NCBI GenBank assembly: GCA_010094025.1
Contig: ML991787.1
Coordinates: 124,001-188,000, forward strand
Length of the DNA stretch: 64,000 nucleotides
DNA from: Viridothelium virens
Taxonomy: Eukaryota; Ascomycota; Dothideomycetes; Trypetheliales; Trypetheliaceae
Direction of reading: 5' to 3'
Below, piece by piece: positions 4,013 to 60,363 of the stretch (positions within the stretch are counted from its first letter, which is position 1; the number at the start of each line of letters is the position of its first letter). The notes beneath the pieces were generated by a model. That model ran no database searches. It was given only the letters and a program-made list of their open reading frames with translations, and was not told the origin of the DNA. The translations under genes and the position numbers were made by a program.

Positions 4013-4572
4013 GTGAAATTACTCATCTGGGCGCGCAGAACTTTACCACGCCACATTCCATCTTTACGACTAGATGAATCTCAGCACACTCTTTAATCGC
4101 CACGCGACCGTATATGCATGAATTGGAGTTGAAGACTTTTCACTGGCAATTTCCTGCACTGCTCATCAATTGTTTCTCTCATGCAAACGAAAGGAAAAAG
4201 ATCAAAAATAGGCGATGGAGGTTTATTTTCTTTGCCGCGCGACATACGTCGAATACCGAATACCGAATACCCGACGAGCTTCAGACTGCTAGCTCGCAAT
4301 TTGTGTTGTATTAGACAGAATCAAGCGCGGCGTAATACGTCATGACTTCTGCGCTTGTTTCCTCGTATGAGTCTTTTGAGTATAGAATTGTGAGACTGCG
4401 CAGCGGTTGACACAAAGCTCACACATTTCTTTTCAGTCGGGAGAGTTGAAGCAATCAATGAAGTCACTCAGTAGCAGCTACAGTATCTCTAGCTCTTGCA
4501 TGCACAATAAGAATTGAATCGCTCTCGTAACGCCTTGTCCCAATGATTCAGCGCCCAAAAGAACCATGTTGG
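4013..4572. other. Intergenic, tail-to-tail between TFIIA and Rad1
   Basis: The 560 bp hold both 3' ends. A perfect three-copy 7-bp tandem (GAATACC) lies at 4251-4271. No gene is seen. Confidence 0.5.
4251..4271. repeat. 7-bp tandem repeat, unit GAATACC x3
   Basis: Three perfect contiguous copies in the intergenic region downstream of TFIIA. Confidence 0.85.
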
Positions 4573-5905
4573 TCATTCGCTCTCCGTCTCCGCATCTTCT
4601 TCACCCTCTCCGTCGCTCGCATCCTCCTCCCCATCACTAATGAATGGCACAAAGCGAAAATCCACAAAACTTACTGCTGGCCCAGCGCCCCTGTTTCCCT
4701 CCACCCCACTTGCGCTCTCCACCTCAATCATAAACTGTAGACTCAGTACCCCCTGCTGATCGATCCTCACACTCACCTTCGTCGCCAGCTGCATCGCCCT
4801 CACCGCATTGCGAATCAAACTAAACTTATACGCCTGTCTGCACCCAGCCCCCTTCGCCACCTGAAACGTCTCAAGCAGAGGTTGCTGCACGTCCTGTGCC
4901 GCTGTACCTCCTCCTCCTCCTCCTCCTCCTCCTCCTCCAGCAGCCGTACCGCCCGCAAACGACGCACCCGCAGCACGAGGCGAAGAAGCCGCACGCGACT
5001 CCGCCGGCGTGCCAAACTCCACACTCGCACTCCCCAGCGGGCCCTCCGCCTCCAGCACCCACAACGGCGCGCGCGTTCCGCGCTCCCGCCGCGCCCGCAG
5101 CACGAGCCGCTCCGGATTCGTCGACGCGAGCTCCGTGAGGGCGTCGTGCAGGTACGCGCTGCGCAGGATGATCTTGAGGGCGAGGCGGTCGCGCGCGAAC
5201 GGGATCGTGGCTGTGCCTGCTCCTCTTCCTCCTCCTTCTTCTCCTGTGGAAGCATCGCCGCCGGAGACAGCGAGGGCGCTGCGCGAGCCTGGCTCGTATG
5301 TGGTTAGCTCGCAGGTGGTGCTGATGCCGGGTTCGGAGATGTGGATGCGGAGGGGGGCGCCTGGCGTGCTGTAGACGAGGCGGCAGAGGCCGGTGGAGGG
5401 GAGGCCGAGGAGGTGCGTGGAGAAGGCGGTGCGGGCGGGGAAGGTGCTGTTGTGGGTGTTGGTGTTGGTGGAGGGGTCGCGGGAGGAGTCGCGCGCGGAG
5501 CGGGGGTCGGTGAGGCCGAGGATTTGGAGGGTTTCGAGGAGGGCGGGGAGGGAGATTTCGAAGGGTGGGGGGTCGTGGTCAGGGAACGCATCGTCCTCGT
5601 TGTGGTCGGGGCGAGTAGATTGGGAGGGTAGGGTTGATGGAGGAGGAGGGTTGTATTTGTAGGATGTGAAGAGGGTATGTTCGAGGAATGCGAAACCTGG
5701 AACGATGAGCTGCCTAACACTCCGGACCTCTAAGAATTTTGCATATCGTACCTTCCATGACACCTGCCTCTTCCACGCTGAAACGAAGACCATCTTGTGT
5801 GATTTGAACTTGAGCAAAAGGAGCGAAATTGATGCATCTTAGAAGGAGGTAAAGCTGCCGAGCATTTGCAGTAACTGCGCGGAGGACAAAGTGTTCAGAC
5901 TCCAT
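4573..5905 (-). CDS. rad1: DNA damage checkpoint clamp subunit Rad1 (9-1-1 complex)
   Basis: Rad1 forms the PCNA-like Rad9-Rad1-Hus1 ring loaded at damaged DNA to activate ATR signalling. Two exons, 5752-5905 and 4573-5696, are joined across a 55-bp intron (5697-5751) to give 425 residues. The join restores the conserved segment SVEEAGVMEGFAFLEHTLFT. Before it come RQLYLLLRCINFAP and QVQITQDGLRF, typical of the first sliding-clamp domain. The Met at 5905 (MESEHFVLRAVTANARQ) is chosen because homologues start there; an in-frame ATG at 5953 would add 16 residues. The protein is longer than usual because of a low-complexity insert with about eleven consecutive Gly, encoded by a CCT tract at 4909-4940, and an acidic Asp/Glu C-tail. 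Codons across 4.9-5.7 kb are far more GC-rich than in the TFIIA gene next door. Confidence 0.92.
4909..4940. repeat. Trinucleotide (CCT)n microsatellite inside the Rad1 coding region
   Basis: A run of about ten CCT units on the + strand, read on the minus strand as GGA/GGC-type glycine codons. It sits in a poorly conserved loop and is likely length-variable. Confidence 0.8.
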
Positions 5906-12608: not shown

Positions 12609-13733
12609 ATGGCTCGGTCCACCTTCGTTTCATTGCTCGCTCTCGCTGCTGGTGCTTTCGCCCAGGTTGCTACCACTTACGTGGATCCTCTGACCGACAT
12701 TACATTCCAAGCCTTCACTGACAATACCACGGGCTACCGCTTTGGTATTGCCCTTCCTGAAAACCCCACCACCGACTTCATTGCTCAGCTGCATGCTCCA
12801 TTGACAAATGGCAGCGGCTGGGTCGGTGCCGACCTCGGCGCTCCTATGGTCAACGAACTCCTCATCGTCGCCTGGCCATCTGGTAACCGCGTGATCTCAT
12901 CCTTCCGCGAGGCCACCGCATACGCCTCTCCTCCCGTTTACAACGGCAACCTCTCCGTCTCGATGCTCCCCATCGCCAAGGGCACGACCGTCACCAAGAA
13001 CTCCATGACCTACACCTTCGTCTGCCAAGGCTGCATCACCAACACCATCGCATCCTTCTCCTCCTCCGACAGCGGCACCGTCTTCGGCTGGGCTCTCAGC
13101 ACCGACGTCGTCCCCAACCCCTCCCGCTCTGCCTCCGCCCTCAACTTCCACTCCGCTGGCTACGGCGACTACGGCGTGAACCTCACCATGGCCAAGAGCG
13201 CGCAGTACGCCCAGTGGGCTGCCCTGGCCAACTCCAACAGCACAACAGGCGTTGGCGCCGGCACTGGTAGCAGCACCGGCCCCAGCTCCGTCCTCGCCGG
13301 CAGCGCCATCCCTTCACCTATCGCCGTCGGCGCTCCCAGCTCCGCCGCGGGTGCTGCGTCCCCGACCAAGAGCGCCTGCCGCAAGAAGCCCAGCCAGGGC
13401 CAGACTGGCTCCGTCTCCGCTTCCCCCAATAGTGGCTCGCAGTCTGGCTCTGTCGCCGCTTCTCCTGTCGGTGAGGCTCAGACCGGATCCGTTACTGCTT
13501 CGCCTGCATCGGGCGCTTCTAGTGCTGCTTCTACAGGTGCCAGCGGTAGTGGCAGCGGCAGCGGTAGCGGTAGCGGTATTGGAGCTGCTCCCTCGTTCGC
13601 TCCTCATCATCATCACCACCATCACCACAACGGGACATTCCCAGGTGGCTTCAATGGCTCTGCGTTCGGTGGTGCAGGTATTCGCCAGCCACGCCGTGCT
13701 CACATTGGGGGCGGTGCTGCTAGGAGATCGTAA
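12609..13733 (+). CDS. Secreted AA8 cytochrome-domain (CDH-type haem b) protein with Ser/Gly linker and His-rich tail
   Basis: This single-exon protein has 374 residues. A signal peptide (MARSTFVSLLALAAGAFA) precedes a domain of about 190 residues like the cytochrome of cellobiose dehydrogenase. Candidate haem ligands are M80 in GAPMVNELLIVAW and H181 in NFHSAGYGDYG, about 100 residues apart as in CDH; CQGC (139-142) supplies the disulfide. No flavin dehydrogenase, AA9 or CBM1 module follows. Instead there is a Ser/Gly/Ala linker with a degenerate repeat (QTGSVSASP, SGSVAASP, QTGSVTASP), a GSGSGSG run, then eight consecutive His and an Arg-rich end. There is no hydrophobic C-terminus, so a GPI anchor is unlikely. 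By family knowledge it could relay electrons to extracellular oxygenases; the poly-His could bind metal (inference). The start at 12609 is set by the signal peptide. Confidence 0.88.
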   Translation: MARSTFVSLLALAAGAFAQVATTYVDPLTDITFQAFTDNTTGYRFGIALPENPTTDFIAQLHAPLTNGSGWVGADLGAPMVNELLIVAWPSGNRVISSFREATAYASPPVYNGNLSVSMLPIAKGTTVTKNSMTYTFVCQGCITNTIASFSSSDSGTVFGWALSTDVVPNPSRSASALNFHSAGYGDYGVNLTMAKSAQYAQWAALANSNSTTGVGAGTGSSTGPSSVLAGSAIPSPIAVGAPSSAAGAASPTKSACRKKPSQGQTGSVSASPNSGSQSGSVAASPVGEAQTGSVTASPASGASSAASTGASGSGSGSGSGSGIGAAPSFAPHHHHHHHHNGTFPGGFNGSAFGGAGIRQPRRAHIGGGAARRS

Positions 13734-13890
13734 GGTTCTCTAGGAGGTTCGATGTACGATTGCATTTGGGGGTGTTGTGTGATATAGTCTTCAATTCTTG
13801 GACATAGTTGCGCGAGGTCGCTTTAGCTTGGAATGAAAAAGCTTTTCTCCCTGAAATACACTCGTCCCCTCCTTGTTAATCTTGGTGACG

Positions 13891-15540
13891 TTACCTCTTC
13901 CGTCGTCGCTTCGCCTTCGTTGTAATGGCTTCATCCATATCTACGTCCATCTCGTCTCCAACATTCAATGCTGTGGTTCTCCCTACTCCAACTCCGGCCT
14001 TCCATGCCTTGACTAGGCCGTCTTCACCGCAGGTATAATACGTCCCGTTAGACCCTTGTCTAGGGTCATAAACGCAGTCCCTAACAATCTCCTCGCCGTG
14101 CGCGCCATCAAAATCGAGAGCCTGTCCCGTCTGCACCAACCACCTCCCATTCTCGTGGTGGATTGGGTATGCCGCCAGATGGGTTCGCCTTCATGCCACT
14201 AAGTCAGCTGCACACCTTACATGCACAACAACATACAAACCACCCCATCTAAGGAGACAAAGGGAGGGAAGAACTTACATCGCATCCCCCACCACCAAAC
14301 CCCCCTCCACCACATCAACCACATACCGACAGCCCACCAACTCCCGCACATCCCCCAACTCCTGCACTCCCTTCTCCCGTCCTTCCCCCTCAGCTGCTGC
14401 CACACCAGCATCACCGCTCACCTCAAAGAAGCTCATCCCCTCGTCCGCGCTTGTCGCCCACACCTGCTCGCCCAGCACGCCCGCCCTATGCACCGCCGAG
14501 CCGAGATTGAACACCTGCACGACGGCGTCGTCTTCGCTGGCGTGAGCGGGGTCGAAGAGGGTGAGCAGGGCGTCGGTGCTGCCGGATAGGAGAAGCGGAG
14601 ACGTCTCAGTGGTAGTAGTCGTCGTCGTCGTGGGAACGCTTGTCGTACTCGGATTGCTGGCGGATATCGTGGTGGGGAAGGACGAGGGCAGGAAGGAGAG
14701 GGTGGTGATGGTGTCAGTGTGGGATTCGGTGTAAGTGCGGAGCGGGGAAGTAGGTTGGCGGATGTCCCTGTGGAGGAGGGGTGCGTGTTAGTTACTGGGG
14801 TTCTGGAGGAGGGGCAGAAGGTGAGGGTTTGGGACGGAGGAAGGGGTGGGAGATGATGGGTTTGAGGGGTTAGGAACTCGGGGTGTCGTACCAGATGTAG
14901 ATGTCGGCTTCGTGGCCGCTGATTTCGAGTTCAGCGCCGGCGGCGATGAGGTTGTGAGATGCGTTGCATGCTAAGGCGGAGAGGGGGATATTGTTTGCTT
15001 GGATCTCTGTCAGACGGAGACTTCATTGGGACGAATCAGTAGCACGGGGACGTATGTAAAGAAAATGAGGGACTGTCACGTTGCCAGAATGACGAGCACA
15101 GAGGCATTGTGAATGATCTTGATGAGAACCGTACCATGATGGTCGTAGGGAAATCTTGCTCAACCTTGAAGACGGATGATGATATCTATTTTCCATATAA
15201 AAAGCAAACCAATCTTACCTGCTATCACTTCAAAGACAGCCTTCGTCGACGAAGCTCTAAGGTCCCATCCTTTCACTTTGCCATCTCTACCAGTAGTCAC
15301 CACCCCAGGTCTCTTGCCTCCATCGATCCCGCCGGTGTCCCAGTCTTTCAAACACGTGATACCTTCATGTGCATTCGGAATTTCGTGAAGAAGACGCAAG
15401 CCATCCGAAGAAAAGCAGCGAATTGCGTCGTCGGAAGCAATAACAAAAATTGCTGTATCCTTAGGACACAATGTGTAGATGTAGGGACTGTTTGGGAGAG
15501 TTGGGGACTGAGCAAGGGTCCGAAAGGTTGTGGGAGGCAT
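13891..15540 (-). CDS. WD40-repeat protein, WDR89-like
   Basis: Four exons on the minus strand, 15219-15540, 14892-15006, 14279-14767 and 13891-14188, splice in frame to 407 residues. Introns are 212, 124 and 90 bp. Beta-propeller signatures include VVTTGRDGKVKGWDLR, SGHEADIYIWDIRQ, LLLSGSTDALLTLFD and YYTCGEDGLVKAWK; the last resembles the C-terminal repeat of WDR89. The protein ends in a basic tract (KAKRRRKR) that may be nuclear-targeting. An in-frame ATG at 15567 would add nine residues. Exon 3 contains a poly-Thr run and is extremely C-rich on the + strand at its left end and G-rich at its right. The family is thought to be a scaffold; no specific partner can be inferred. Confidence 0.85.
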
Positions 15541-17530: not shown

Positions 17531-18052
17531 TGCGGTGAGTGGGAGGAGGTGACTGCAGCAGAAGCCGGTCGAAGATGAGGCAAGTGAGTCGTCCCTATTG
17601 TACGATCGACTTCAGGCCCAGCAGCAGCCGGAGCTGGGCCCGCCAGTGTTGCGCCTCGGTTGGGTCACGATCGAGCGCGGATTAGATTGCGGACGGAGCG
17701 TTGGAAGGTTGATGTCAGGGGCCTGGACTATCCGAAAAGGGCTCGCGGCTTAATGCAACACCCAGGAACAGAAACAACGTGCGCAACCTGCGGACCTTGC
17801 GTAAACTCGTCTTTGCCTCAGTGACGAGGATGTAAGACGAAGTTGAGCGCCAGGAGAATCTTCCGGAGGTTATGGGATCTGGGTTCAAGTACCGGGTTTG
17901 GCAGCCGCGTGGAATGGGTCGCCCCTCGCTTTCCACCGCAAATGGGAGATGAGCGGTGCGATGCAATGCGGCAAGAGAGGGTGTGCTTATTTCACGCTGA
18001 TGGTACTGCGTACTCCGTATCTCCCGTGGAATAGGCACGAAGGCGCGATGGC

Positions 18053-18074
18053 ACGATACCACGATACCACGATA
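18053..18074. repeat. 8-bp tandem repeat, unit ACGATACC
   Basis: About 2.75 copies of ACGATACC, contiguous. A further ATGGCACG-like half unit precedes it. Confidence 0.75.
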
Positions 18075-28686: not shown

Positions 28687-30962
28687 ATGGCATCTCACCT
28701 GCTTTCCAATTTTTCAAAGCCAACCAACGGCCATGTCAAGGACGGCAAGCAACATGATCTCGAGCGTGATGTCAAGAACGTTCACGATCCACACTGGCGG
28801 ATTACCTCGGACTTTGGTGTCAAGCAGTCGAATACCGATGATTGGCTACGAGTTGCCACTGAAGACCAGACTGGTCCTTCGCTTCTTGAGGATCATTTTG
28901 CCCGGGAAAAAGTACGCCCACTCGCATGTACAACTGAATTCTCCAGGATACTTACATGTTTCGTTAGATCCACCGTTTTGATCATGAGAGGATTCCCGAA
29001 CGCGTCGTCCATGCTCGCGGTGCTGCAGCCTTCGGTCACTTCAAGCTCACCGAGAGCGCTTCCGATGTAACCAATGCCGCCGTTCTGACCGACACTTCTC
29101 GTGAAACACCAGTGTTCCTTCGCTTCTCCACGGTCTTGGGCAGTCGAGGCAGTGCCGATACCGTTCGGGACGTTCGTGGCTTCGCCGTCAAGTTTTACAC
29201 TCAAGAGGGTAACTGGGATATCGTTGGCAACGATATTCCTGTATTTTTCATTCAAGATTCCATGAAATTCCCCGACCTGATTCACTCTGGCAAACCCGAA
29301 CCCAATAATGAAGTCCCCCAGGCCCAGACTGCCCACAATAACTTCTGGGATTTTGTATACCTACATTCAGAGGCTACACATATGTACCAGTGGGCAATGT
29401 CGGATCGAGGCATTCCTCGTTCATACCGTATGCTCCAGGGCTTTGGTGTCAACACCTACACCTTGATGAACGACAAGGGCGAGCGCCACTTCGTCAAATT
29501 CATCTTCACACCTGAGCTTGGTGTACACTCATTTGTATGGGATGAGGCTCTTAAGCTTGCAGGGCAAGATCCGGACTTTCACCGGAAAGACCTTTGGGAG
29601 GCTATCGAGTCTGGCAATCCGGCTAGGTGGAAATTTGGGATCCAAGTAATACCGGAGTCTAAGGAGCATGATTTTGACTTCGATATTCTCGATGCTACTA
29701 AGATCTGGCCGGAAGAACTTGTACCTATCCGATACATCGGTGAACTGGAGCTTAACCGGAATCCTGATGAGTACTTCACGCAGACTGAACAAGTCGCCTT
29801 CTGCACTAGCCATGTCGTTCCTGGAATTGGCTTTTCGGATGACCCTCTGCTTCAAGGCCGGAACTTTTCCTACCTCGACACACAGCTCACCCGTCTAGGG
29901 GTCAATTGGCAAGAGCTACCCATCAATCGTCCCGTATGCCCGTACCTCAATCACAACCGAGATGGCGCTATGCGTCACACAATCAACCGGGGTACGGTGA
30001 ACTACTGGCCCAACCGGTTCAGTGCCGTCGCTCCTGCCAAACCCGAGGAGGGCGGCTACGTCGACTACCCGCAAAAGGTCGAAGGCATCAAGACCCGCAT
30101 GCGCAGCAAGAAATTCCGTGACCACATCTCTCAAGCCCAGCTCTTCTACAACTCCATGAGCTCGCACGAGAAGAAGCACATCGCCTCCGCCCTCTCCTTC
30201 GAGCTCGACCACTGCGACGACCCCACCGTCTACGAACGCATCTCGCAGCGCCTCGCCGACATCGACCTCAAACTCGCGCAGCAAGTCGCCGCCCAAGTCG
30301 GCGCCCCGGCACCGCAACACGCCAGCATCGCCAACCACGGCAAGACGGCCAAGGGGCTCTCACAAACCGAGTTCCTGCCCGCCGAGCCCACCATCCAAAC
30401 CCGCCGCGTCGCCATCCTCATCGCCGACGGCTTCGACCCCGTCGCCTACAGCGCCATCGTCGCCGCGCTGAAGTCCGCCCGCGCCATGCCCTTCACCATC
30501 GGCCCGCGGCGCGGCGCCGTCTTCGCGAAGGGCGAGAGCCGCGAGCATGGGCAGGGCGTCAAGCCGGATCACCATCTTGAGGGCATGCGCAGCACGATGT
30601 TCGACTCGGTGTTTGTGCCTGGAGGTGCGGATTCCGTGGAGACGCTGAGGAAGAACGGGCGCGCGCTGCATTGGGTGCGCGAGGCGTTTGGCCATCTCAA
30701 GGCGATTGGGGCGACGGGTGAGGGCGTGCAGTTGGTGAGGGATGCGTGTCAGTTGGAGGGCGTCCGCTTCTCGGAGGGAGAGGACGTGGTGTCGTCGTAT
30801 GGGGTGGTGACGGCGGTGAAGACGCAGCCGGAGCGGTTGAAAGAGGTGTTTAAGATGGCGAGGGGGGCGGCGAACTTTGTGGATTCGTATTTCTGGGAGA
30901 TTAGCCAGCATCGCAACTGGGATCGGGAGATGGATGGATTGGCTGAGATGGTGGCGTATTAG
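28687..30962 (+). CDS. catA: Large-subunit catalase, CatA-type, with C-terminal DJ-1/GATase-like domain
   Basis: Haem catalase dismutes hydrogen peroxide to water and oxygen. Two exons, 28687-28911 and 28968-30962, with a 56-bp intron, give 739 residues, the length of fungal large-subunit catalases. Distal His is H90 in ERVVHARGAAAFGHF, Asn is N163 in VGNDIPVFFIQD, and the proximal Tyr is about Y377 in GRNFSYLDTQLTRLG. The C-terminal 150 residues (RRVAILIADGFDPVAYSAIV, then DSVFVPGGADSVETL) form the flavodoxin/DJ-1-like domain of this class. There is no signal peptide, so it is cytosolic or spore-type rather than the secreted CatB type. Codon use changes abruptly near 30.0 kb from mixed to very GC-rich, and the strand bias flips near 30.5 kb. 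Confidence 0.96.
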
Positions 30963-33120
30963 GTGGAGGTGTGGGCATGCTGTTACGGTTGAAGATGGGA
31001 GCTGGAGCAGATGCGGAGAAATGAGGAAAGAACGGTAATATTTCTTGGTGTTGATAGTTTCTCAAAACATTGCAGCAGATGCTGTATTTTCTCGCTTCAT
31101 GTACTCATCTTGAGTTTGCTGAATGAAATACCATTGGTTGTGGCATTTGAATCAAAGTCACGGAATCGCACGAATAATCGCAGTACGTGAAAGCCAGCGT
31201 AGCTACCAAGAATACAAGCACATTGCCTTGCAAGGCGATAGTGATCTGGTCACATCAAACACTGGAAAGGGCAATGGCGAAGCTCGCAAAAAATGCTGGT
31301 ATTCGTAATCCTAAGGAGACCAGAGAGAGGAATGGAGAACTACACTCTGTACCCGCGCATGATGGATATCATGAATGCCAGAGAGGACGATTTTTACCCT
31401 CGGAAGTCTTCGTTCTACGCTACGCCCAAGCTTTGTTTCCGCTCTTCGTAAGAAAGGTACCTGACTTAGATAGCTGCGCGGACAGCCACCTATTGGATGG
31501 AAGTTGATCCCACTTCTCACGAAGCGAGAGGTAGAGAAATCGCTCGAGGATAGACCTGGATGAGCGGAGACCCAGAGAAGCGTTACTTTCATTTTCGTGT
31601 TGGGGGATTTCATAGTGTACTCATCCAATCTTGTTGGTGGAGGCAACAGCCGAGACTAAAGAGTACGAGAACAATTATCGGATGTTTGTTGGTGTTGCGA
31701 CACGGTTCAACAAAAGAAGAACACTTCCATAAGGTATGGGGTCGTTTCACAACCAACTCCTCAAGTCCATCAAAGCGAGTGAGGTCATTCTAGCTACCTA
31801 ATGCATAAGACCGGCTTGCGCGTTGTTAGTAACGACGAGGAGTTTTTTTTTTTTAATTAGCGTCTATGTGGATTCATGCTCTTGAAGTACCAGCGATTGC
31901 AGGTGGGGTTGACCAGACGCACAGCTGAGCTTCCCACAAGAGTTTCAAAAAGCAGATCAAGAGAAGGGGCATGCGCACTTTAAGTATTAAGTAACAGGAT
32001 ATCTAAGTCTCGTGTCTCTGTAATCAAAGAAGATTGCTTTTGGGGAAGGGTTAATTCGATGGCGAGGAAGGATTGCTGACAGGTGTCAGTGGTCCACCAC
32101 TGATGCGTGGCTCAGCTCCCTAACCTGGGAAGGTGCTAGTGCCCCTTTTCCCTGTCGATCATACCTTATGCAATAGTTGCGTCGTACCTACTTCGTACTC
32201 CGTACTCCGTACTCCTCTCCATACCATACGAACTGGGATGACTGACGGATCATCAGAGAAGCCGCGCCTTACAGCTGCACCAGACGCCACTTATCTTGCC
32301 CGTGATCTGCCCCAAGAAGAGCGAGCGATTGTTCGCGGGGGAACTGCGAAGCTTCCTGTCGCTTCCCTTTTCCATATCGGCATGACTTCCAGAATAGACA
32401 CAGACCGGTTAACTGCAAAAGTCCGCTATCAGCATCGGTCACTATTGCGGGCAGGCAACGCTACATGCGCCAATCAGTACATTACCAGAAATGCATGAGA
32501 CCGCCCGGTGGCTTTCGGGGTCTGCTTGGGCTGCCTGCCAGTAATCGCTGTTGGTCGCTGTTACACGATCTAGATCTGTGGACGAGAATGGCGCCGAACC
32601 ATCCCACGAGCAAACAACCTTGTCAACGAATAGGTCGCATAGATCTATACTACCCAGTAAGTGTTATAATGGCTACTTATGCAAACTATCGTGCGTCACA
32701 AAAGAAAATACCCGTCACTTCAGGGACTGTAAGAAAAGTTGGTCAGAGCTGGCCCGAGAGAGTAAGACACTGACAACACCGGTGTAAGTTGCATTTTTAG
32801 TCCGCGTTATAAATCTCATTTTTGGAAAGCAAAGACAACATAGGATGTTTCCGCTCATCTCGAGTTCTAAACGCTTTCGAGGCCATCTATGGCCGTTCAG
32901 GTGTTAGAGACCTTCGACCACTCATACCTGCCTCCAACATCCGAAATGGCCAGTCAACCCTTGCACTGAGCTGTTCTATCATCAGTGCTGCTTGGGAAAC
33001 TGTCTTAATTAAGGGAAGGCCATGGCATCGACCTGATAGCAGATTGCAAGGGACCTTTCTTAGCATGCTCATGCACACATCTTGTACTCCAATTCATAGA
33101 ACTTCTCGCTCGCCGCTCTC
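30963..33120. other. Gene-poor stretch (2.2 kb)
   Basis: No gene is recognised. A T-run lies near 31843-31855 and a three-copy 7-bp tandem (CGTACTC) at 32194-32214. The 121-codon frame at 32133-32498 has no family features. Confidence 0.5.
32194..32214. repeat. 7-bp tandem repeat, unit CGTACTC x3
   Basis: Three perfect contiguous copies. Single related GTACTCCGT strings also occur near 18.0 kb. Confidence 0.85.
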
Positions 33121-36885: not shown

Positions 36886-39107
36886 ATGGCGGCCAACTTC
36901 AATGCAATCCCCACGCTACCCCTCGCGCAGGCGCGGGACCCCAAGACAAAATCTGCTTTCCTGGACGATTTGCGGTCGGCGCTGCTGAATGTGGGATTTC
37001 TCTATCTCTCAGAGACGGGGCTGGACGAGGAGTTGGTGGAGCGCGTCTGCGCAGAAACGAGGAGGTTTTTTGAGGAGCTGCCGGAGGACGAGAAGCTGAA
37101 GATTGAGATGAAGAACGAGAAGAGTTTTCTGGGGTACTCTAGGGTGAGTCCAGTTTTCCGAAAATCATTTCTGTCGTAGGCAAGAATATAAGCGTGTCCC
37201 AAAGCGACCAAGTAGAGGTGGGGAGAAATAGTATCAAAGTATTGTTCTGTATTCCTTGTCAATCACATTTGCTTTTGATAAATCGAAGAAAAAATACGCT
37301 TCAGAAAAGAGTTGGCCATCTCCTTTCATCAAGAGCACAACGCTTGCCTCCCACCCAAGGGTATCTCCACCACATGCTGCCTTATGCAACCTGACAACCA
37401 CCGTACCACTAACGCCTTGCTATTCAAAATCACTAGCTGGGAAACGAAACAACCGCCCGCGCCGCAGATCAAAGAGAGCAACTCGACCTCTCTACACCCC
37501 ATGACCTCCCGGCTCCCACCGCACCACTTTACCACAACCTCCTCGCCCCCAACCAATGGCCCTCCCCCACGCACTTACCCACCTTCCGCCCCATCCTCGA
37601 AGAATACATGCAGCAAATGTCCTCGATCTCCACCTTCTTCACCTCGCTCATCGCCGAAGCCATCGGGCTCGCTCCTTCCGCCTTCACCCGCTTCTTCGAC
37701 CCCAACCAGCAACACAAGCTGAAAATCATCAAGTATCCCGAGATGCCACCACGCCTCTCCATCCCCTCCGACCACCCCTCCTCCAACCCGCTCAGCGACA
37801 ACGACGACGACTCCGACGACAGCGACAGCGAAGCCCTCGCCCGCGCCCGCGCCAGCGCCAATGCCGGACGCCGCAGCAGCCTCAAAGAAGCCGGACACGA
37901 GGCGCGCGCGCAAGGCGTCGGCCCGCACAAAGACAGCATGCTGACGTCGTACCTTTTGCAAGCGTCGCCGCAGCGGGGCCTACAAGCGCAGAACCCGTCG
38001 GGCCGCTGGATCGAGGTGCCGCCCGTGGAGGGCACGCTGGTGGTGGCGATCGGGCAGGGCTTGGAGGCGCTGACCGGCGGGGTGTGCGCGTCCACGACGC
38101 ACCGCGTGCTGAGTCCGCTGCCTGGAGAGGGCGCGCGCTACTCGGTGCCGTTCTTTCAGGGGGTGTCGTATGATGCGGTGTTTGAGAGTGTGGAGGTGCC
38201 GGAGGGGGTGAGGGAGTTGAGGAGGGGGGTGCTGAAGGAGCTGGGGGGCAGCCGGAGGGATGATGTCGAGTTTACGTTTGTGAAGGGACGGTGGGGACAT
38301 CTGGGGGAGGCGACGTTGATGAATAGGGTGAAGAGTCATCCGGATGTTGGGGAGCGATGGGTGAGTGTGATGCATTTTCTTCCTCTTGTTGTTTGTGGCT
38401 TCTTGTGACGACGGTGTTTGTTGTTCTTGATGTCGCGTTTCCTCTCCCATGGGCCTCCTCGACCGTCCCGACGAGGGAAGACAACGACTCCAGGGATGGT
38501 GAGAGTAATCACGCATACGTACGTATGTCCTAGAGATTGTTTGGACTAATGGGCAGTGCCTGAACCGGAAAGGGGCTTCTCCGACGTTCCGGCGCTGTTC
38601 CTGATTCTGAGGCTCGGCGACGGAAATAAGGTAGCGCGGAGTTGGAAGCATCGGCTTAGTATGACTCGCTATAGGGGCAATTTGGCCTGTGGAGCCACCG
38701 GAACTCCCTGAATCGTGCCCAACGTGTTTCTCCAGATCGCACGTTTTCCCCTCAAGTCGCCCTGGGTAGCGTGAACCCAGTTCAACCGTTCGCCTCGGAT
38801 CTCAAGAGGGCCACCGCTTGCCCCTTCCCCTAATAGTTGGTCAATCCGCCTATGACTCTTCTAGATTTCAGAAGCCCTTGGCAATGTATCTCCATGGTCA
38901 ATTTAGTTTCGTTCTTCTCGTTCAGCTTGTCAGATGTCTCAGAAGGTACAGAAACTGATTGGTTGGCAGTATCCAGAACTCCTTGCGCAGATACGAGCCG
39001 AACAGGCTCAGCAACAGAAGTCCGAAGCAGAAAACCAGTCTTCGGCCAAAGACGTAGCGCAGCCTGGTGGGAATACTTCTAATCCCACAGTTTTGAGGGC
39101 ACACTAA
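36886..39107 (+). CDS. 2-oxoglutarate/Fe(II)-dependent dioxygenase (isopenicillin-N-synthase-like)
   Basis: Three exons, 36886-37143, 37437-38360 and 38970-39107, splice in frame to 439 residues. The N-terminal DIOX_N region is clear (FLDDLRSALLNVGFLYLSET, then KSFLGYSRLGNETTARAADQ across the first junction). The double-stranded beta-helix supplies the iron ligands HKD in GVGPHKDSMLTSYLLQ and His in CASTTHRVLSP, and RYSVPFF carries the 2OG-binding Arg-x-Ser. The last exon begins WYPELLAQIRAEQAQQQ, the usual C-terminal helix. A charged insert (DNDDDSDDSDSEALARARAS) precedes the HKD. The introns are very long for a fungus, 293 and 609 bp, yet join conserved residues. Without the last splice the frame would close at 38408. 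The substrate is unknown. Confidence 0.9.
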
Positions 39108-45129: not shown

Positions 45130-45807
45130 GGTAGAGGTGCTTGGAAACGAATAAATGTAAAAGTGAAAAAAGGATTTACAGTTTATCTAAAGTCAATTAC
45201 AAGACTGCCGCCGGCAAGATCCGCGTCATCTAGCTGAACTCTAGACGCTTTCAAGTTCATCAATTACGCAGATGTATCGATACTCTGCTCAGCTATCTAT
45301 CACCCTATCATATTGCCGATAATAGTGGCCTCGGAAGCTCCGACCCCGGCACATTGCATAGATTGAAGATAAGTGGTTCGGTAGATCATGGATTTGGGGG
45401 AAACTAGTACATTCATGGAAGCTAACACGCACAATGACCGAGTTTCATTAACTGATTGGCGTCCCAGGCCTTGATTTCCTTGCGAATTGCTCCAAGGTGC
45501 ATGAAAAGGCCACCTGCAGCATGCAGGAAGTACGATTATGGCACGTAGGGCAGACGGCTTTGGTTCTAACGCGAGCTTGTAATGCATTATATAAGTGACG
45601 TTACTGCTTTGGTAATCTTTCTCGTCGGTCTTGGTCCGTGCCTAAGGCGGTCAACAAAGTCTTTGACACTGCAAGCAAACAAAGTTTCCAACGCCAGAAA
45701 TGCGGGGAATGTAGGGTGGTGGAATGAAAGCACGACGCCCTACAAGTGTTCCATCTAACAACTCACCAACTTGTGCGTATTCGCTCCTCGGTCAAGCCGT
45801 CGTAGCC
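45130..45807. other. Intergenic region upstream of the permease
   Basis: About 680 bp, the permease promoter and the 3' flank of the GFA gene. Nothing else is seen. Confidence 0.5.
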
Positions 45808-46760
45808 CTACGAACTTCCCATCTGCACATCTTGCGCCCCACTATCAGCATCAGCTTCACCTTTTCGCTTCGTCCCCCTTTGCTCTACCTCAATTCCTTC
45901 ACCTCCCTCCCCATCCACTTCCACAACCTCCCACTCTACTCTTGTCGTACCATCTCGACTCGTATGCCCTCCCTTTTGCCGCTTGACATGACCGAGCCTG
46001 CTATTGTCCACCATCGACTCAAACCACGGGAACCCTCTCACGGTCATCCGGTCCTGCGGCTGAGACCGCACAACTTCCCTTATGCCCTCGCTACGCCTCC
46101 TTGCACTCGGCTCATCTCCTTGTTCTGCTCCCTCTGTCCTTCTTTCCTCCCTTTCCCTCCCTTCCTCCCCTTCGTCCTCCTCTTCATCCTCTTCCTCCTC
46201 TTCCCCCTCATCGGGTAGCAGCCCCAGTCCCACCAACCGATCCAGATCTTCCCCCACGAGACTTCCCAGCGTCAGTGAGATGAAGCCCGCATCATCCCTT
46301 GTGCGCTCGTTCCAGCTTGACAGCTGTGTGCCGCAATAGCCGCAGAACTGGCGGCGCACGGTCGGGAGGGCTGTGTGGGTGCTGGCGGGGGAGGTGAAGG
46401 TGCGCCGGATGGAAGCGTGTGTCTCGTCCGGATAGTAGGCATAGGTGGCGGATTGATACCAGGGGAGGGGGACGCGAAGCCAGGCTGTCAGAGGGGCGGC
46501 TTGATGACGACCTGTAGGAATGTCTTGTATCAGAGATTGTGGTATTGCCATAGAATGTAGTGGGGTGTCAAGTAGAGTGGAGATTTGGGGGAGATGCCAG
46601 AGGCTCGGAAGCTTTGGAAGTGATTTGACGTACGATTTGCGCTACCACTGTCGAAGAAAACATGTGCGAGGCTCGTTATAGCTTGATCCTCCGGTATGTA
46701 GACCATGTATTCATTGCGACCACAGCTACAAGAGCCATGGAGTGGTGCTGAACCACTCAT
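45808..46760 (-). CDS. GFA/CENP-V-fold protein with long acidic C-terminal extension
   Basis: Two exons, 46634-46760 and 45808-46511, with a 122-bp intron, give 276 residues. The start MSGSAPLHGSCSCGRNEYMV carries the first Cys pair (CSCG). RRQFCGYCGTQLSSWNE supplies the CxxC pair near the end of the fold. The middle CHCxxC zinc cluster of canonical GFA proteins is absent; the segment reads VFFDSGSANRRHQAAPLTAW, so one zinc site and the thiol chemistry are probably lost. The second half is an insertion of Glu-rich low complexity (EGEEEEEDEEEDEGEEGRER) followed by a tail with FPWFESMVDNSRLGHVKRQK. An upstream in-frame ATG at 46934 is disfavoured because its product lacks family residues. The function is unknown. 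Confidence 0.82.
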
Positions 46761-53193: not shown

Positions 53194-54697
53194 ATGGCAT
53201 CGTCCAGCCGGCCCTTTATGCGGGCTCTGGCTCGCTCTACTGTGCGAACACCAAAGCTCTCGGCTTGTAGGAGACCGCTTCCGTGGGCTCGGAAACAACA
53301 GTAAATGAGCAGTGCGAGAATTATACGTGCGAAAAATTTGCTCATGAGTCTCATATAGGACCCGGACAATATCCACGACATGTTCATGCCACCAGATCGT
53401 CACCAAAGGCGAACCTTTGGACATAACCGACATCCCTCCTACGCCAATTACGCACCTTTCCGAGACAGAGGCCTTAATGAAAGACCAAGTTTCCAAATTC
53501 GCTTCCGAAGTCATTCTTCCCAAATCAAGAGAAATGGATGAAGCAGAGAAAATGGATCCAGAGATCATCGAACAATGTTTTGAGCAAGGACTGATGGGCA
53601 TTGAGATCCCAGAAGAGTACGGCGGTGCGGGCATGAACTTTACTGCTGCCATTGTGGCGATTGAGGAGCTGGCACGAGTTGATCCAAGTGTGAGCGTCAT
53701 GACAGACGTTCACAATACGTTGGTAAACACGGCAATCTTGAAGTATGGCAGTGAAAAGACGAAAAAGGATTGGTTACCACAACTCGCTACGAATACCATT
53801 GGTATGCCCTGTCTGCTTCTAAGCTTCCATCCTCAAACTACGCCACTCCTCCCTATCAGTCCGATATAGACCTGCAAAGCTAAACCCATCCTCCTCCCAG
53901 GCTCCTTCTGCCTCTCCGAACCCATCTCCGGCTCCGACGCCTTCGCGCTCAAAACCCGCGCCACCAAGCAACCCGACGGCTCCTACCTCCTCTCCGGCAG
54001 CAAGATGTGGATCACCAACAGCCTCGAAGCCGGCTTCTTCCTCGTCTTCGCGAACCTCGACCCCTCCGCCGGCTACAAAGGCATCAGCGCCTTCCTCCTC
54101 CCACGCGACACGCCGGGGTTCGCGATCGCAAAGAAAGAGAAGAAACTCGGCATCAAGGCGTCTTCCACCTGCGTCATCACCCTCGACGACGTCCACCTCC
54201 CGGCGTCGGCGCTGCTCGGCCGCGAAGGCGAGGGCTACAAGTACGCCATCGGCCTCCTGAACGAGGGCCGCATCGGCATCGCGGCGCAGATGACGGGCTT
54301 GGCGCTCGGGGCGTGGGAGAACGCGGCGAGGTATGTGTGGAATGATCGGCGCCAGTTTGGGAAGCTGGTTGGTGAGTTTCAGGGCATGCAGCATCAGCTT
54401 GCCCAGGCGTATACGGAGATCCAGGCGGCGAGGGGACTGGTGTATAATGCGGCGAGGAAGAAGGAGGCGGGCGAGGAGTTTGTGGCGGATGCGGCGATGG
54501 CGAAGCTATTTTCGAGTCAGGTCGCGGGGAGGGTGAGTGGGAGCGCGATTGAATGGATGGGGGGCATGGGGTTTGTACGGGAGGGGCTAGCGGAGAAGTA
54601 TTGGCGGGATAGTAAGATTGGGGCGATCTATGAGGGGACGAGTAATATTCAGTTGACGACGATTGCGAAGTTGTTGCAAAAGGAGTATACGGGTTGA
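53194..54697 (+). CDS. Acyl-CoA dehydrogenase, mitochondrial, short/branched-chain type
   Basis: Three exons, 53194-53300, 53359-53801 and 53901-54697, splice in frame to 448 residues. The N-terminus (MASSSRPFMRALARSTVRTP) is a mitochondrial presequence. Conserved blocks follow: GLMGIEIPEEYGGAGMNF, GSFCLSEPISGSDAFALKTR (second junction), YLLSGSKMWITNSLEAGFFL, RRQFGKLVGEFQGMQHQLAQ and IGAIYEGTSNIQLTTIAKLL, whose Glu is the usual catalytic base. The length and the WITNS and YEGT motifs fit the SCAD/ACADSB branch. It uses FAD, oxidises an acyl-CoA at alpha-beta and passes electrons to ETF, in beta-oxidation or isoleucine/valine breakdown. The intron 1 acceptor is inferred from frame. The last exon is much more GC-rich than the first two. 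Confidence 0.93.
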
Positions 54698-54876
54698 GGT
54701 TGTGGCTGGAGATCTTGAAAGGGTTGGGGGGCTACATGTTTTGAGATAATGGATTGTACGTTGTACTTGTTTGTCACGATTGTATATGATTAATAGAGAG
54801 ATAGGGTTTGAGCTCCTCGAGGCTTGAAATTTGAAAATTAAGATACGTTCGATTGGCTAAACAGTCTGAATTCCTC

Positions 54877-57046
54877 CTAACATGTGACCTTCACACGCCA
54901 TGTCCCTCCCGTGAAATCGCTGACCTCCGCCGTCCCATTCACCAATCCGATCGATCCACCTGTCGTGGAGGTCCCCATCCCCATTTCCTGTATCCACACC
55001 GACCCTTCACACCCGGGCTCATCAATACTCAAACTCCCATTCGTGCCCGCCGGTGCCGAGAACTCATACGTAAATCCCTGCGCCGTGGACGTAGTCGAGC
55101 TATTGGACCGAGTCAGCTTCGCACTGAAATCCCCCAATCCCGTCGAGAATCCAGCCTCCACACTCGTGAGGTTTCCCGGCCTCGGCGCCATCTGCCACGT
55201 CTTCCCTTCCACCGTCAACGGCTGAATCCCCGCGACATACATGCTCAGCGCGCTTGTCGGCCCCGTCGCCCAGCCATGAGCATGACTCACACGTGCGTCG
55301 TTGGTGTAGGGTGCGTAATGCAAGCTGCCATCTGTCGAGTAGCCCTCGATGAAGGTCGAGTTGGTCATGCGAGGGTCGTCAAGCATGAAGTCCGCCCACA
55401 TGAAGCTCATGAGGTCGAGCGCACGTTGTGGAGCGCCTGCGATGAAGTGCACCTGCAGCTCGAAGGAGGAGATAAAGGGGGACACAGTGGCGCCGGCTTC
55501 GGGGGCAGGCGCACCATACGGACCCCAGCGGGAGGCGAGGTTGGAGGAGATGGAGGTAGTTTGGGAGTTGTTGGCGACGAGGCCGGAAATTACGGCCCAG
55601 CAGTTGCCATCTTGGGGGTGGAGGGTAGTGGTTTCGTTATCACGGTAGAGCCCGGCGGAGCTGTCCCAGAGACGGGAGTTGGCGGCGGATTTGATGCCGT
55701 CAGCGTAGGAAGTCCAGTTGGCGTTGGAAGAGGTGTCATTGACAACGGTAGAAAGGGAGAGGCCAAGCTGGATGGTGTGGTAGAGAATGGAGTTCGCCTA
55801 GCTGTAATTTAGCTTTCAGATGAATATAAGGCAGGAGATAGACTGACCTCGATGTTATGCCCACCCATTCCAAAGCGGAGCCAGTCAGCAGAAGACGTTA
55901 CGTTTTGTAGACCTGAGCTGTCAACGAACGAAAGAGAATAGGCCAATGCAAGCTTGAACTGATTCCAATGGGCAGTAAGATAGGCAATGTCGCCAGAGTA
56001 AACGTAGTAGTTGTATAGACCGATAAGACTATACAGATGATATGTAAACGAGAATGCCCCGGTAATCTGACCGAATGGGACACCGGCATATGGCAAGGCT
56101 CCAGAGCTGTTCTGTAAAACGAAGAGGGACGAAAGACCATTGCGGATTGAAGTAAGATCATTAGTAGAAACGAAAATACTGGGCACCGCCACAGACATAT
56201 CGCCGGGCCAAACAAGTCGGTCACGTTTAGCACCGTCGGTAAGTACTTCGGTACCATTCGCAATTGTGTAGTTATTGTACCAGGACACTGTATAGTTCAG
56301 AGTCTCATTGCTGTTGATGACACCTAGATGCACAAGCGCATCGCCAGCAGAGGGTTCGATAGAGCAAAGCTGCGACGTCCAGGCTCCTGCGTAAAAGACT
56401 CGGTTTAATTTGTCCTCGTTGCAGTGAAAGTATCCAGTGTAGTTCCGTAAACCATCGGCCCCAGCGGCAGGGTTTGCAGTCATGTTTACCGTCGTAGATG
56501 AAATAGATACAGAGCCAGTGTCATTTGGGTGCACGACGCTCATATACCGGAAAGCACCTCGCCGATATTGTGGAAGAGCTGTGTAAGTGCCAGATCCATC
56601 TAGTGGGAACCACAATGGGTCGTCCAACCCAGCATCCGCAGTTCCATCTGCAATTCACTGTGTCAGTGTGTTCCAAGACAACAAATCGCTATTGGTCACC
56701 TACCACATGAATCAGGGGAGATCCAGAGAGATGATTCAGTGAAAGTGATCCCGATATATTGGCCAGTCCCATTCACACTATCAACATCGAAACTGACAAT
56801 GCCTTCCACGTTCTTGCCAAAATCGTATGTGACTCCCGATTTGCCTTGGAAGAGGGCATTTCCTGATGAAGGACTTGAAGCTAGCAACGCCTTCGCATTG
56901 GATACAGACCCATTGACGAATCGAGTCGAGGTTGGGACCAGTGTTCGTGAGGAAGGAGCCAAGATGTACTCAGAGTATGGAATTGCAGAAGAAACCCTCG
57001 CTAGGGCCAAGGATGCCAGTACGTTGATAGTGAAAGACACCATCAT
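54877..57046 (-). CDS. Secreted GH78 alpha-L-rhamnosidase
   Basis: Three exons, 56704-57046, 55848-56647 and 54877-55797, with introns of 56 and 50 bp, give 687 residues. A signal peptide (MMVSFTINVLASLALARVSS) precedes a beta-sandwich region (YDFGKNVEGIVSFDVDSVNG). Then comes the segment DGTADAGLDDPLWFP restored by the first splice. The (alpha/alpha)6 catalytic part includes AKRDRLVWPGDMSVAVPSIF, SADWLRFGMGGHNIEANS (second splice) and RVSHAHGWATGPTSALS, all typical of fungal GH78. It would remove terminal rhamnose from plant pectin or flavonoid glycosides outside the cell. Many sequons are present. It is tail-to-tail with the acyl-CoA dehydrogenase, 179 bp apart. Confidence 0.9.
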
Positions 57047-59244: not shown

Positions 59245-60363
59245 ATGGCGGGCGAGCAATACAATCCACCAGCAGGACCTCCTCCAAGCTGGCGGCAACG
59301 TCACCACGATGAGTACGCTCCGCCGTCCGGTCCACCTCCCTCTCATCGTCATAAAGAGACTTTCGATCCACCACCCGGCCCTCCCCCTTTCCGCCGGCAC
59401 AACGAGACTTTTGCCCCGCCATCGGGTCCTCCCCCGTCCCACCACCACGACGAAACATTCGCTCCACCCTCTGGCCCTCCCCCTAACAAGAACCAAACAC
59501 CATCCGAGTCAAACCCTCCACCCTACCACGACTGGACCATCATCCCCGACACCGCCCTCCTCCCACCACCCCCCGCCATACACCACGAAATCAGCCCCAC
59601 CGCCAACGCGAGCGCCTCCTCCGCTGATCACGCTCGCCACTGGACCCAGCGCAACCCGCTCGCGCCACCCGCCCACCTCTCGCACGCCGCGCAAACCGCG
59701 CGTCAGAACCAGCAATACCTCATCAACCGACCGCGCGAGTTCACAGGGCAGATCTTCCCGAACCGGACGCCGGGGACGCACCGCCTCAAAGCCGGCGAGC
59801 GATGCGCCGACTGCGTGCTGATCATGGCGCTGCCGTCGTACTCGGCGCGGCTCGACTCGCCGCTGGAGACTGAGGTGGCGCGGACGATCTATTTCGAGGT
59901 GCGGGTGGAGCGGATGGGGCGGGCAGGTGACGCGGGGATTGCGGTTGGGTTTGTCGCTCTGCCGTATCCGACGTGGAGGTTGCCGGGGTGGGAGAGGGGG
60001 AGTATTGGGGTGCATGGGGATGATGGGAGGAGGTATATGAATGATAATGAGGGGGGCAAGGATTTTACCACGCCGTGGCGGGATGGGGAGACGGTGGGCG
60101 TCGGTATGCGGTTTGCGGTTTCGGAGCAGCCGCCGGGGTATGGGGAGAGTCGGGCGCGTCTGAAGGTGGAGGTGTTCTTTACGAGAAATGGAGCGAAGGC
60201 CGGGGGGTGGGATGTTCATGAGGAGAAGGATCTTGATGATACGAGTGGAGACGTGCAGGGTTTGGAGGGGTTTCATGATCTCCATGCTGCGGTTGGTATC
60301 TTTGGTGGTTCGGACTTTCAGATCATTCTGAATCCAGCCGAATGGAAGTATTATCCCGAGTGA
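59245..60363 (+). CDS. SPRY-domain protein with proline-rich N-terminal repeats
   Basis: This intronless gene encodes 372 residues. The first 80 residues hold five imperfect copies of a 15-17-residue unit with the core (F/Y)xPPxGPPP, separated by His/Arg-rich spacers (RHHDEYAPPSGPPPSHRHKE), resembling SH3- or WW-binding sequence. A globular B30.2/SPRY fold follows: RTIYFEVRVERMGRAGDAGI, VGFVALPYPTWRLPGWERGS, IGVHGDDGRRYMN, TVGVGMRFAV, VEVFFTRNGAKAGGWDVHEE and HAAVGIFGGSDFQIILNPAE. Fungal SPRY proteins with this order are similar to endosomal Ssh4/Ear1-type or Ran-binding SPRY proteins, but no membrane segment is seen here. The binding partner is unknown. Confidence 0.85.
   Translation: MAGEQYNPPAGPPPSWRQRHHDEYAPPSGPPPSHRHKETFDPPPGPPPFRRHNETFAPPSGPPPSHHHDETFAPPSGPPPNKNQTPSESNPPPYHDWTIIPDTALLPPPPAIHHEISPTANASASSADHARHWTQRNPLAPPAHLSHAAQTARQNQQYLINRPREFTGQIFPNRTPGTHRLKAGERCADCVLIMALPSYSARLDSPLETEVARTIYFEVRVERMGRAGDAGIAVGFVALPYPTWRLPGWERGSIGVHGDDGRRYMNDNEGGKDFTTPWRDGETVGVGMRFAVSEQPPGYGESRARLKVEVFFTRNGAKAGGWDVHEEKDLDDTSGDVQGLEGFHDLHAAVGIFGGSDFQIILNPAEWKYYPE

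What the first reader, a model, noticed from the sequence alone, without database searches (positions are those of the whole stretch)
4560..5690. C-rich to G-rich strand switch across Rad1, first of a repeated pattern
On the + strand, base counts in 60-base lines go from about C25/G10 near 4561 to about G36/C7 near 5401, with the switch near 5.1-5.3 kb. The same order recurs in GC-rich patches at about 14.3-14.98 kb (WDR89-like; C34/G3 to about G31/C5, switch near 14.52), 30.05-30.95 kb (catalase, near 30.5), 37.45-38.35 kb (dioxygenase, near 37.95), 45.8-46.5 kb (GFA, near 46.33), 53.9-54.68 kb (acyl-CoA dehydrogenase, near 54.22), 54.88-55.8 kb (GH78, near 55.33) and 59.3-60.2 kb (SPRY, near 59.78). 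It is independent of gene direction: four of these genes are on the minus strand and four on the plus strand. A C-to-G switch left to right is what leading/lagging asymmetry around a replication origin would give. High GC could also reflect biased gene conversion at recombination hotspots. Either would mean local DNA processes, not protein function, shape these exons.
Basis: partly seen in the sequence, partly recalled or inferred. Interest (0 to 1): 0.72.

Follow-up and report, generated by a model that had tools for sequence, protein, structure and literature searches.

The report
Strand-flipping GC islands at gene ends
In this fungus the last kilobase of many ordinary genes has been pushed to extreme C-richness in its first half and extreme G-richness in its second half, ending near the stop codon, which points to an unidentified DNA-level process tied to gene ends rather than to what the proteins do.

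Summary
Synonymous sites flip within single genes: in two-fold pyrimidine codons (top strand) C is 86% left and 35% right of the centre; in two-fold purine codons G is 34% left and 90% right; over 900 bp away both are about 50%. One well-supported intron and the 3'UTRs share the bias, so codon choice is an unlikely cause.

"Independent of gene direction" is automatic, since C-then-G survives reverse-complementing. The islands are gene-anchored: the coding-sense 3' edge lies within 110 bp of a stop codon in 20 of 23 (15% by random placement; 7 of 52 wrong-frame ORFs). Replication origins do not fit; strand-symmetric GC-biased conversion is contradicted. I favour strand-specific repair synthesis from recurrent breaks about 0.4 kb before the stop. 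Divergent transcription from an internal point is a close rival. Neither is proven. Ten paper searches listed nothing like it.

The parts
4578..5113 (.). Rad1 island (gene on minus strand, ORF ends at 4576): top-strand C-rich arm, the coding-sense 3' half
   Evidence: fit; Pfam Rad1 E 1.9e-47; 3' edge 2 bp from the end of the ORF
5114..5686 (.). Rad1 island: top-strand G-rich arm, the coding-sense 5' half
   Evidence: fit; GC about 0.7 in 200-bp windows round the centre
13979..14987 (.). WDR89-like gene island (minus strand, ORF ends about 13894), switch at 14523
Evidence: The blind scan merges this island with the C-rich end of the neighbouring gene (12829-14987)
14768..14891 (-). Intron of the WDR89-like gene inside its coding-sense C arm: 124 bp, C 64, G 10, A 28, T 22
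   Evidence: C minus G 0.44 against a maximum of 0.25 among 268 pattern-called candidate introns outside islands
30122..31026 (.). Catalase island (plus strand, ORF ends at 30959), switch at 30507
   Evidence: Pfam Catalase E 5e-164; alignment to PDB 1sy7 runs to both C-termini
37316..38372 (.). 2OG-Fe(II) oxygenase island (plus strand, ORF ends at 38405), switch at 37996
   Evidence: Pfam 2OG-FeII_Oxy E 5e-16
45731..46622 (.). GFA-like gene island (minus strand, ORF ends at 45811), switch at 46348
53827..54731 (.). Acyl-CoA dehydrogenase island (plus strand, ORF ends at 54694), switch at 54201
   Evidence: Pfam Acyl-CoA_dh_1 E 8e-39; sequence
54873..55792 (.). GH78-like gene island (minus strand, ORF ends at 54880), switch at 55292; tail to tail with the previous gene, two separate islands
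   Evidence: Pfam Bac_rhamnosid6H E 2.7e-10 on the upstream ORF 55812-56654 and weak sub-threshold Trehalase/MGH1-like matches on this one
59266..60270 (.). SPRY-domain gene island (plus strand, ORF ends at 60360), switch at 59793
   Evidence: Pfam SPRY E 5e-9

Best explanation
SHOWN: in this ascomycete a fraction of genes carries a terminal island of about 0.6-1.4 kb, mean about 0.9 kb. On the coding strand C dominates in the half farther from the stop codon and G in the half nearer to it. In the averaged profile the switch spans roughly 200 bp, and it sits on average 411 bp upstream of the stop. The bias hits synonymous sites, codon positions 1 and 2, at least one intron and 3'UTR sites, and fades within about 60-100 bp after the stop.

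INFERRED mechanism: recurrent double-strand breaks, most likely meiotic, at the island centre, repaired by homologous recombination. Repair synthesis adds new DNA to the top strand right of a break and to the bottom strand left of it. If that nascent strand gains G and loses C (error-prone synthesis, or mismatch correction that favours G on the new strand), the top strand becomes G/T-rich on the right and C/A-rich on the left, symmetric about the break, with both effects overlapping in a GC-richest centre.

INFERRED and unexplained: why breaks fall inside the terminal part of transcription units and why the tract stops near the gene's end. A chromatin boundary at the 3' end would do it.
For: Mirror-symmetric two-arm anatomy with a GC maximum (0.67-0.68) at the centre and skew of about +/-0.48 on both sides, centre placed by cross-validation. 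Blind scan 23 against 3. At four-fold sites C is 0.62 left and G 0.62 right, with the other bases at 0.09-0.16; at two-fold sites C is favoured on the left and G on the right, with the opposite GC type below background (22 genes). An intron and 3'UTRs affected. Flip present in PRP8, Med16, Vps39, VPS11, aldehyde dehydrogenase and catalase; in the five of these with an upstream part to measure, codon use there is near background (genes named). Break repair in the human germline leaves strong strand-asymmetric substitutions including C>G, A>G and C>T, with translesion synthesis implicated (PMC7615360, section 4 and passages read). Intragenic recombination hotspots exist in a filamentous ascomycete: in Zymoseptoria tritici 1435 of 2578 hotspots are in exons (PMC5844332, passages).
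Against: The 3' edge is the best-aligned landmark (SD 79 bp from the stop, against 153 for the centre and 200 for the 5' edge), and conversion tracts have no obvious reason to stop there. The skew is a plateau to about 380 bp rather than an exponential decay from the centre. In human hotspots the substitutions remove C and A from the 3' single-stranded tails left of the break, which at a central break would give the opposite polarity, so the nascent-strand version is required. No break, recombination or population data for this species. No significant shared motif at centres: best 6-mers in 15 of 23, reached in 55% of shuffles; CGCGTC in 12 of 23, reached in 10%.
Confidence: 0.38

Rival explanations
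1. Divergent transcription from a cryptic promoter inside the gene. A bidirectional start at the island centre gives a short sense RNA that ends at the gene's own poly(A) site and an antisense RNA about as long. The displaced non-template strand of each (top right, bottom left), exposed in R-loops, accumulates G and T, as at CpG-island promoters.
For: Explains directly why the 3' edge tracks the gene's end and is the least variable landmark, why the G-rich bias runs only about 60-100 bp past the stop, and the C-to-G switch with a GC peak that resembles bidirectional CpG-island promoters (recalled). T over C and G over A on the presumed non-template strand fit transcription-linked asymmetry (site classes; the comparison is recalled).
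Against: Full-length sense transcription leaves the rest of the gene without this asymmetry (sites over 900 bp away). No significant shared motif at centres. CpG observed/expected is only slightly raised, 0.95 in islands and 1.10 at centres against 0.89. The strong shift at four-fold sites needs transversions, which I do not know as typical of transcription-linked mutation. No transcript data.
Confidence: 0.3
2. Ordinary strand-symmetric GC-biased gene conversion at intragenic recombination hotspots.
For: GC peaks of about 1 kb in exons; intragenic hotspots known in Zymoseptoria.
Against: Predicts more G and more C on both sides. Instead G falls in the C arm at two-fold purine sites (0.34 against 0.51) and C falls in the G arm at two-fold pyrimidine sites (0.35 against 0.54). 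PMC5844332 reports extremely weak or absent gBGC in its two species.
Confidence: 0.05
3. Replication origins: leading/lagging asymmetry either side of an origin.
For: C-to-G is the bacterial origin polarity (recalled).
Against: Skew decays to about 0.1 or less by 640 bp; two switches 1.09 kb apart with return to baseline between them; 3' edges near stop codons in 20 of 23.
Confidence: 0.02
4. Selection on codons or translation: NNC codons early and NNG codons late in the terminal kilobase.
For: In coding sense the order is always C then G and it ends at the stop codon. Few introns lie inside islands, so the non-coding evidence is thin.
Against: The WDR89-like intron in a C arm has 64 C and 10 G in 124 bp; a likely intron of the aldehyde dehydrogenase gene at a C-arm edge has C 0.44/G 0.09; 3'UTR after 23 island genes has G 0.333/C 0.172 against 0.228/0.250 after 87 others. 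First and second codon positions shift too. Only some acyl-CoA dehydrogenase paralogs have it.
Confidence: 0.07
5. Selection for, or templating by, a long hairpin: the C/A-rich 5' arm pairs with the G/U-rich 3' arm in the RNA or in single-stranded DNA.
For: The arms are complementary in composition, and predicted folds pair across arms (42-85% of pairs in 12 islands).
Against: Folding energy is no better than with each arm shuffled separately in most cases: 12 islands, 25 shuffles each, z from -3.07 to +1.42, two below -2 (Rad1 and the 2OG gene).
Confidence: 0.06

Closest known systems
Mouse meiotic break hotspots with a nucleotide skew that changes polarity at the centre (Smagulova et al. 2011; recalled, not held in the library)
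   Same: Skew with sign change at the centre of a local DNA-processing site.
   Different: There the site is set by PRDM9 (recalled), and I could not check the direction of its skew. Here the islands sit in the 3' ends of genes, dominate composition, and no break map exists.
Strand-asymmetric mutagenesis at human recombination hotspots (PMC7615360; section 4 and passages read)
   Same: Substitution types swap to their reverse complement across the centre; C>G, A>G, C>T.
   Different: Flanks of about 2 kb, a rare-variant signal rather than equilibrium composition, and the tail-strand polarity is opposite to what a central break would need here.
Intragenic recombination hotspots of Zymoseptoria (PMC5844332; passages read)
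   Same: Filamentous ascomycete; hotspots in exons.
   Different: That paper reports extremely weak or absent gBGC, and its main text holds no word beginning with 'skew'.
GC3 variation along genes from meiotic conversion in yeast (PMC3020949; abstract and passages read)
   Same: Meiotic recombination shapes GC along genes.
   Different: There breaks are practically excluded from coding sequence; here the GC maximum is inside it. Its main text holds no word beginning with 'skew'.
GC skew at CpG-island promoters and at 3' gene ends linked to R-loops (Ginno et al. 2013; recalled, not held under the identifier tried)
   Same: C-to-G switch with GC peak; G-rich non-template strand before the gene's end.
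   Different: Here the switch is inside coding sequence, two-armed, in a fungus.

Membership tests
Replication-origin GC skew | Skew extends along the replicon (kilobases) from the switch | tested here: not met
   Skew about 0.1 or less from 640 bp either side
Replication-origin GC skew | Origins spaced tens of kb apart and not tied to gene 3' ends | tested here: not met
   Centres 1.09 kb apart at 54201 and 55292; 20 of 23 island edges within 110 bp of a stop codon
Strand-symmetric GC-biased gene conversion | Local GC rise | tested here: met
   GC 0.62 in islands, 0.67 at centres, 0.50 elsewhere
Strand-symmetric GC-biased gene conversion | Both G and C favoured on each side of the hotspot | tested here: not met
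   Two-fold purine G 0.34 in the C arm; two-fold pyrimidine C 0.35 in the G arm; 0.51 and 0.54 far away
Meiotic break hotspot with skew reversal | Skew changes sign at the centre, same polarity at all sites | tested here: met
   23 C-to-G against 3 in the mirror control; by GC alone 26 of 27 to 35 of 47 according to threshold
Meiotic break hotspot with skew reversal | Breaks or recombination at the centre | not testable with these tools
   No break map, crosses or population data for this genome
Meiotic break hotspot with skew reversal | Polarity expected from damage on 3' single-stranded tails (loss of C and A left of the break on the forward strand) | tested here: not met
   Left arms are C-enriched whereas PMC7615360 reports C>N and A>N on that strand
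CpG-island-like bidirectional promoter | C-to-G switch with GC peak | tested here: met
CpG-island-like bidirectional promoter | CpG enrichment | tested here: inconclusive
   CpG o/e 0.95 in islands, 1.10 at centres, 0.89 elsewhere
CpG-island-like bidirectional promoter | Transcription start at the centre | not testable with these tools
   No RNA data; no significant shared motif at centres
Island of convergent (tail-to-tail) gene pairs | Downstream neighbour on the opposite strand | tested here: inconclusive
   12 of 17 callable island genes against 28 of 53 controls, Fisher P 0.26; 6 of 23 had no callable neighbour and one call is visibly wrong. By ORFs alone 17 of 23 against 32 of 62, P 0.085

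The most novel reading that the evidence does not exclude
A strand-switching substitution engine tied to transcription units. At perhaps 1,700 sites in this genome (13 islands in 230 kb of stretches away from the window, scaled up to 30.7 Mb), some process acts outward from a point about 0.4 kb before the gene's end and stops near that end. It writes any-base-to-C on one side and any-base-to-G on the other, strongly enough to set synonymous codons even in PRP8 and to push protein composition. No described process that I know of has this combination of polarity, size and anchoring.
Probability: 0.4. Interest if true: 0.8.

Novelty: new variant of a known kind. Interest (0 to 1): 0.63.

Why it matters
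Local composition is usually put down to replication, transcription, GC-biased conversion or codon selection. Here one genome shows synonymous sites flipping between C and G within single exons, at a consistent place in unrelated genes. If breaks cause it, sequence alone would give a break map for a species with no genetics, and the strand rule would show which strand repair favours. If internal divergent transcription causes it, the islands mark cryptic promoters. Either way it confounds codon-usage, selection and horizontal-transfer tests that assume one composition per gene, and it shows DNA-level bias reaching even PRP8.

Tried and rejected
Codon or protein cause: judged unlikely through an intron, UTRs and paralogs. 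Acyl-CoA dehydrogenase loci in the genome: 11 fetched; 5 show the terminal C-to-G pattern (L027, L028 mild, L029 = the window's own, L031, L033), 3 do not (L030, L032, L036), 3 not judged (L034 not found; L035 and L037 short ORFs). Some of these ORF ends may be splice sites rather than gene ends (a first pass with wrong strand choice for some loci was).

ORF-end artefact: stop codons are rare in GC-rich DNA, so any open frame might end at an island edge. Checked: 7 of 52 other-frame ORFs end within 110 bp, against 20 of 23 assigned. Of 9 ORFs open for at least 300 bp outside the island, 8 end within 110 bp. Two of the 23 gene assignments (WDR89-like, GH78) were made by hand; the WDR89-like one counts as a miss because the scan merged it with its neighbour. 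The other two misses are L004 (-225) and the island at 74 kb of the joined stretch (+117).

Introns: of 7 pattern-called candidates inside islands, 3 lie on the strand opposite to the assigned gene, one lies in an open frame of a C arm (L015), one in the GFA-like ORF, one spans a centre; only the one beside the aldehyde dehydrogenase exon (L016) is a likely intron. The WDR89-like intron was read by hand; a second one in its G arm (C 12-14, G 21-23 in 71-80 bp) has uncertain ends.

Hairpin: not supported. Shared motif at centres: none significant. Convergent neighbours: not significant. cDNA-mediated conversion from gene 3' ends: considered because most islands lie in one open frame, dropped because the WDR89-like gene keeps a skewed intron. 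Breaks at the island edges with inward resection: polarity would fit the human data, but neighbours across a shared 3' end often lack a facing island. Rfam and tRNA scans of the window: nothing. Papers that looked close and were not: PMC9001825 (outline and abstract; mismatch resolution in single-strand annealing) and PMC7403616 (passages; 'GC skew' there means GC-biased substitution, not strand skew).

Full report
SETTING. The window is bases 124001-188000 of contig 17 of a 30.7-Mb, 175-contig assembly, and no relatives are held. Gene content is that of a filamentous ascomycete (my reading): a cellobiose-dehydrogenase-type cytochrome domain, 110 P450 matches, and a catalase whose best solved relative is 1sy7 'Catalase 1' (that 1sy7 is from Neurospora crassa is recalled). 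The species is not known to me.

OBSERVATION. A scan that knows nothing of genes, run on the window, its two 10-kb neighbours and 23 further 10-kb stretches (314 kb), finds 23 islands with a C-rich left arm and a G-rich right arm, and 3 in the mirror-image control; at score 60 or more it is 19 against 0. Defining islands by GC alone in 264 kb (window and 20 stretches), 26 of 27 with 400-bp GC of 0.62 or more have the C-to-G order, 26 of 33 at 0.60 and 35 of 47 at 0.575. The mean profile is symmetric: GC 0.67-0.68 at the centre, skew about 0.48 either side on a plateau to roughly 380 bp, about 0.1 or less from 640 bp.

ORIENTATION. C-then-G reads C-then-G on either strand, so finding it in four plus and four minus genes says nothing for or against a gene link. 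The link shows in position. With the gene assigned by the longest overlapping ORF (two by hand), the coding-sense 3' edge of the island lies within 110 bp of the stop in 20 of 23; islands dropped at random over ORFs of 200 aa or more do so 15% of the time (binomial P about 6e-14). The control for GC-rich DNA lacking stop codons is 7 of 52 wrong-frame ORFs. Pfam domains running close to the C-terminus support the stops of catalase and acyl-CoA dehydrogenase, PRP8, Med16, Vps39 and an AIR-synthase-related protein, and an aldehyde dehydrogenase and VPS11. Among 22 islands (WDR89-like left out) the edge-to-stop SD is 79 bp, centre-to-stop 153 bp (mean 411), 5'-edge-to-stop 200 bp (mean 878); arm lengths are uncorrelated, r -0.04. 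Averaged over 110 ORFs of 200 aa or more, coding-strand skew goes from -0.18 at -900 to +0.18 just before the stop and 0.04 in the next 100 bp. In 24 island genes, chosen by eye from earlier calls, G is about 0.42 and C 0.12 right up to the stop, then 0.34/0.16, 0.30/0.19 and 0.25/0.18 in successive 30-bp bins.

WHAT CHANGES. In 22 island genes (the WDR89-like gene left out, its ORF being in pieces) third positions flip: two-fold pyrimidine C 0.86 left, 0.35 right; two-fold purine G 0.34 left, 0.90 right; four-fold C 0.62 left, G 0.62 right with the rest at 0.09-0.16; sites over 900 bp away, available in the longer ORFs, are 0.54, 0.51 and 0.21-0.27. The direction holds in 21 of 22 genes for the first and 22 of 22 for the second. 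In PRP8 the C arm has C in 24 of 27 two-fold pyrimidine codons and the G arm, the last 175 bp before the stop, in 3 of 19. Codon positions 1 and 2 shift the same way in eight window genes, and tandem or triplet repeats lie in several arms. Non-coding DNA shares it: the WDR89-like intron has 64 C and 10 G in 124 bp, and a likely intron beside the aldehyde dehydrogenase exon has C 0.44/G 0.09, against 268 pattern-called candidates elsewhere at 0.244/0.230 with a largest excess of 0.25; 3'UTR of 23 island genes has G 0.333/C 0.172 against 0.228/0.250 in 87 others. So the bias works on DNA or pre-mRNA, and on one strand at a time: G at purine sites of the C arm, and C at pyrimidine sites of the G arm, fall below background.

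WHAT THIS EXCLUDES. Replication origins: wrong length scale, spacing and location. Strand-symmetric GC-biased conversion: wrong at two-fold sites. Codon selection: made unlikely by the intron and UTR evidence, which is small in amount. Protein function: some acyl-CoA dehydrogenase paralogs have the pattern and some do not, and the island genes are unrelated. Hairpin selection: no pairing beyond composition in most of 12 islands.

MECHANISM. The strand that gains G (and, at pyrimidine sites, T) is the top strand right of the centre and the bottom strand left of it. Those are the strands made by repair synthesis at a break in the centre, and also the displaced non-template strands of transcripts diverging from the centre. 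They are not the 3' tails that stay single-stranded at a central break, where human data show loss of C and A (PMC7615360, section 4 and passages). I put recurrent break repair with a nascent-strand bias first, since it accounts for GC gain, transversions and symmetry, and internal divergent transcription close behind, since it accounts best for the fixed 3' edge. Neither has direct evidence here. Convergent neighbours are commoner among island genes but not significantly (12 of 17 against 28 of 53, P 0.26; by ORFs alone 17 of 23 against 32 of 62, P 0.085).

LITERATURE. Ten searches of the open-access library were made. None listed a paper on C-to-G skew islands at fungal gene ends. Most subscription papers are not in that library and long result lists were cut, so this is not proof of absence. 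The mouse hotspot skew (Smagulova 2011), CpG-island and 3'-end skew (Ginno 2013) and transcription-linked asymmetry are recalled, not read.

VERDICT. Real, found across the sampled genome, gene-end anchored, not explained by the usual causes; mechanism open.

Noticed in passing
window 17887-18735: The one clear reversed patch in the window: GC-rich, left-half skew +0.15 and right-half -0.31. No Pfam match for the two ORFs tried there.
   Followed up: partly
window 41135-42427: Two GC-rich patches (0.58-0.59) without a skew switch; not every GC island is two-armed.
   Followed up: no
window 12710-13787: The gene with a CDH-type cytochrome domain has a C-rich left half (skew -0.32) but no G arm (-0.04); its C-terminus is a Ser/Gly/His-rich low-complexity tail.
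   Followed up: partly
window 4907-4938 and 46131-46209: CCT-type triplet and nonamer repeats in top-strand C-rich arms, where the minus-strand genes code for poly-Gly (Rad1) and Glu-rich (GFA-like) tracts: the bias may seed low-complexity inserts.
   Followed up: no
window 59356-59484: 48-bp tandem repeat (2.7 copies) coding for Pro-rich repeats in the C arm of the SPRY gene.
   Followed up: no
L007 3327-5283; L016 1889-3838; window 53827-55792: Tail-to-tail gene pairs in which both genes have islands, with separate centres.
   Followed up: partly
L012 1-1785: The PRP8 C-terminal part carries an island at its 3' end (1192-1869), with synonymous sites flipped.
   Followed up: yes
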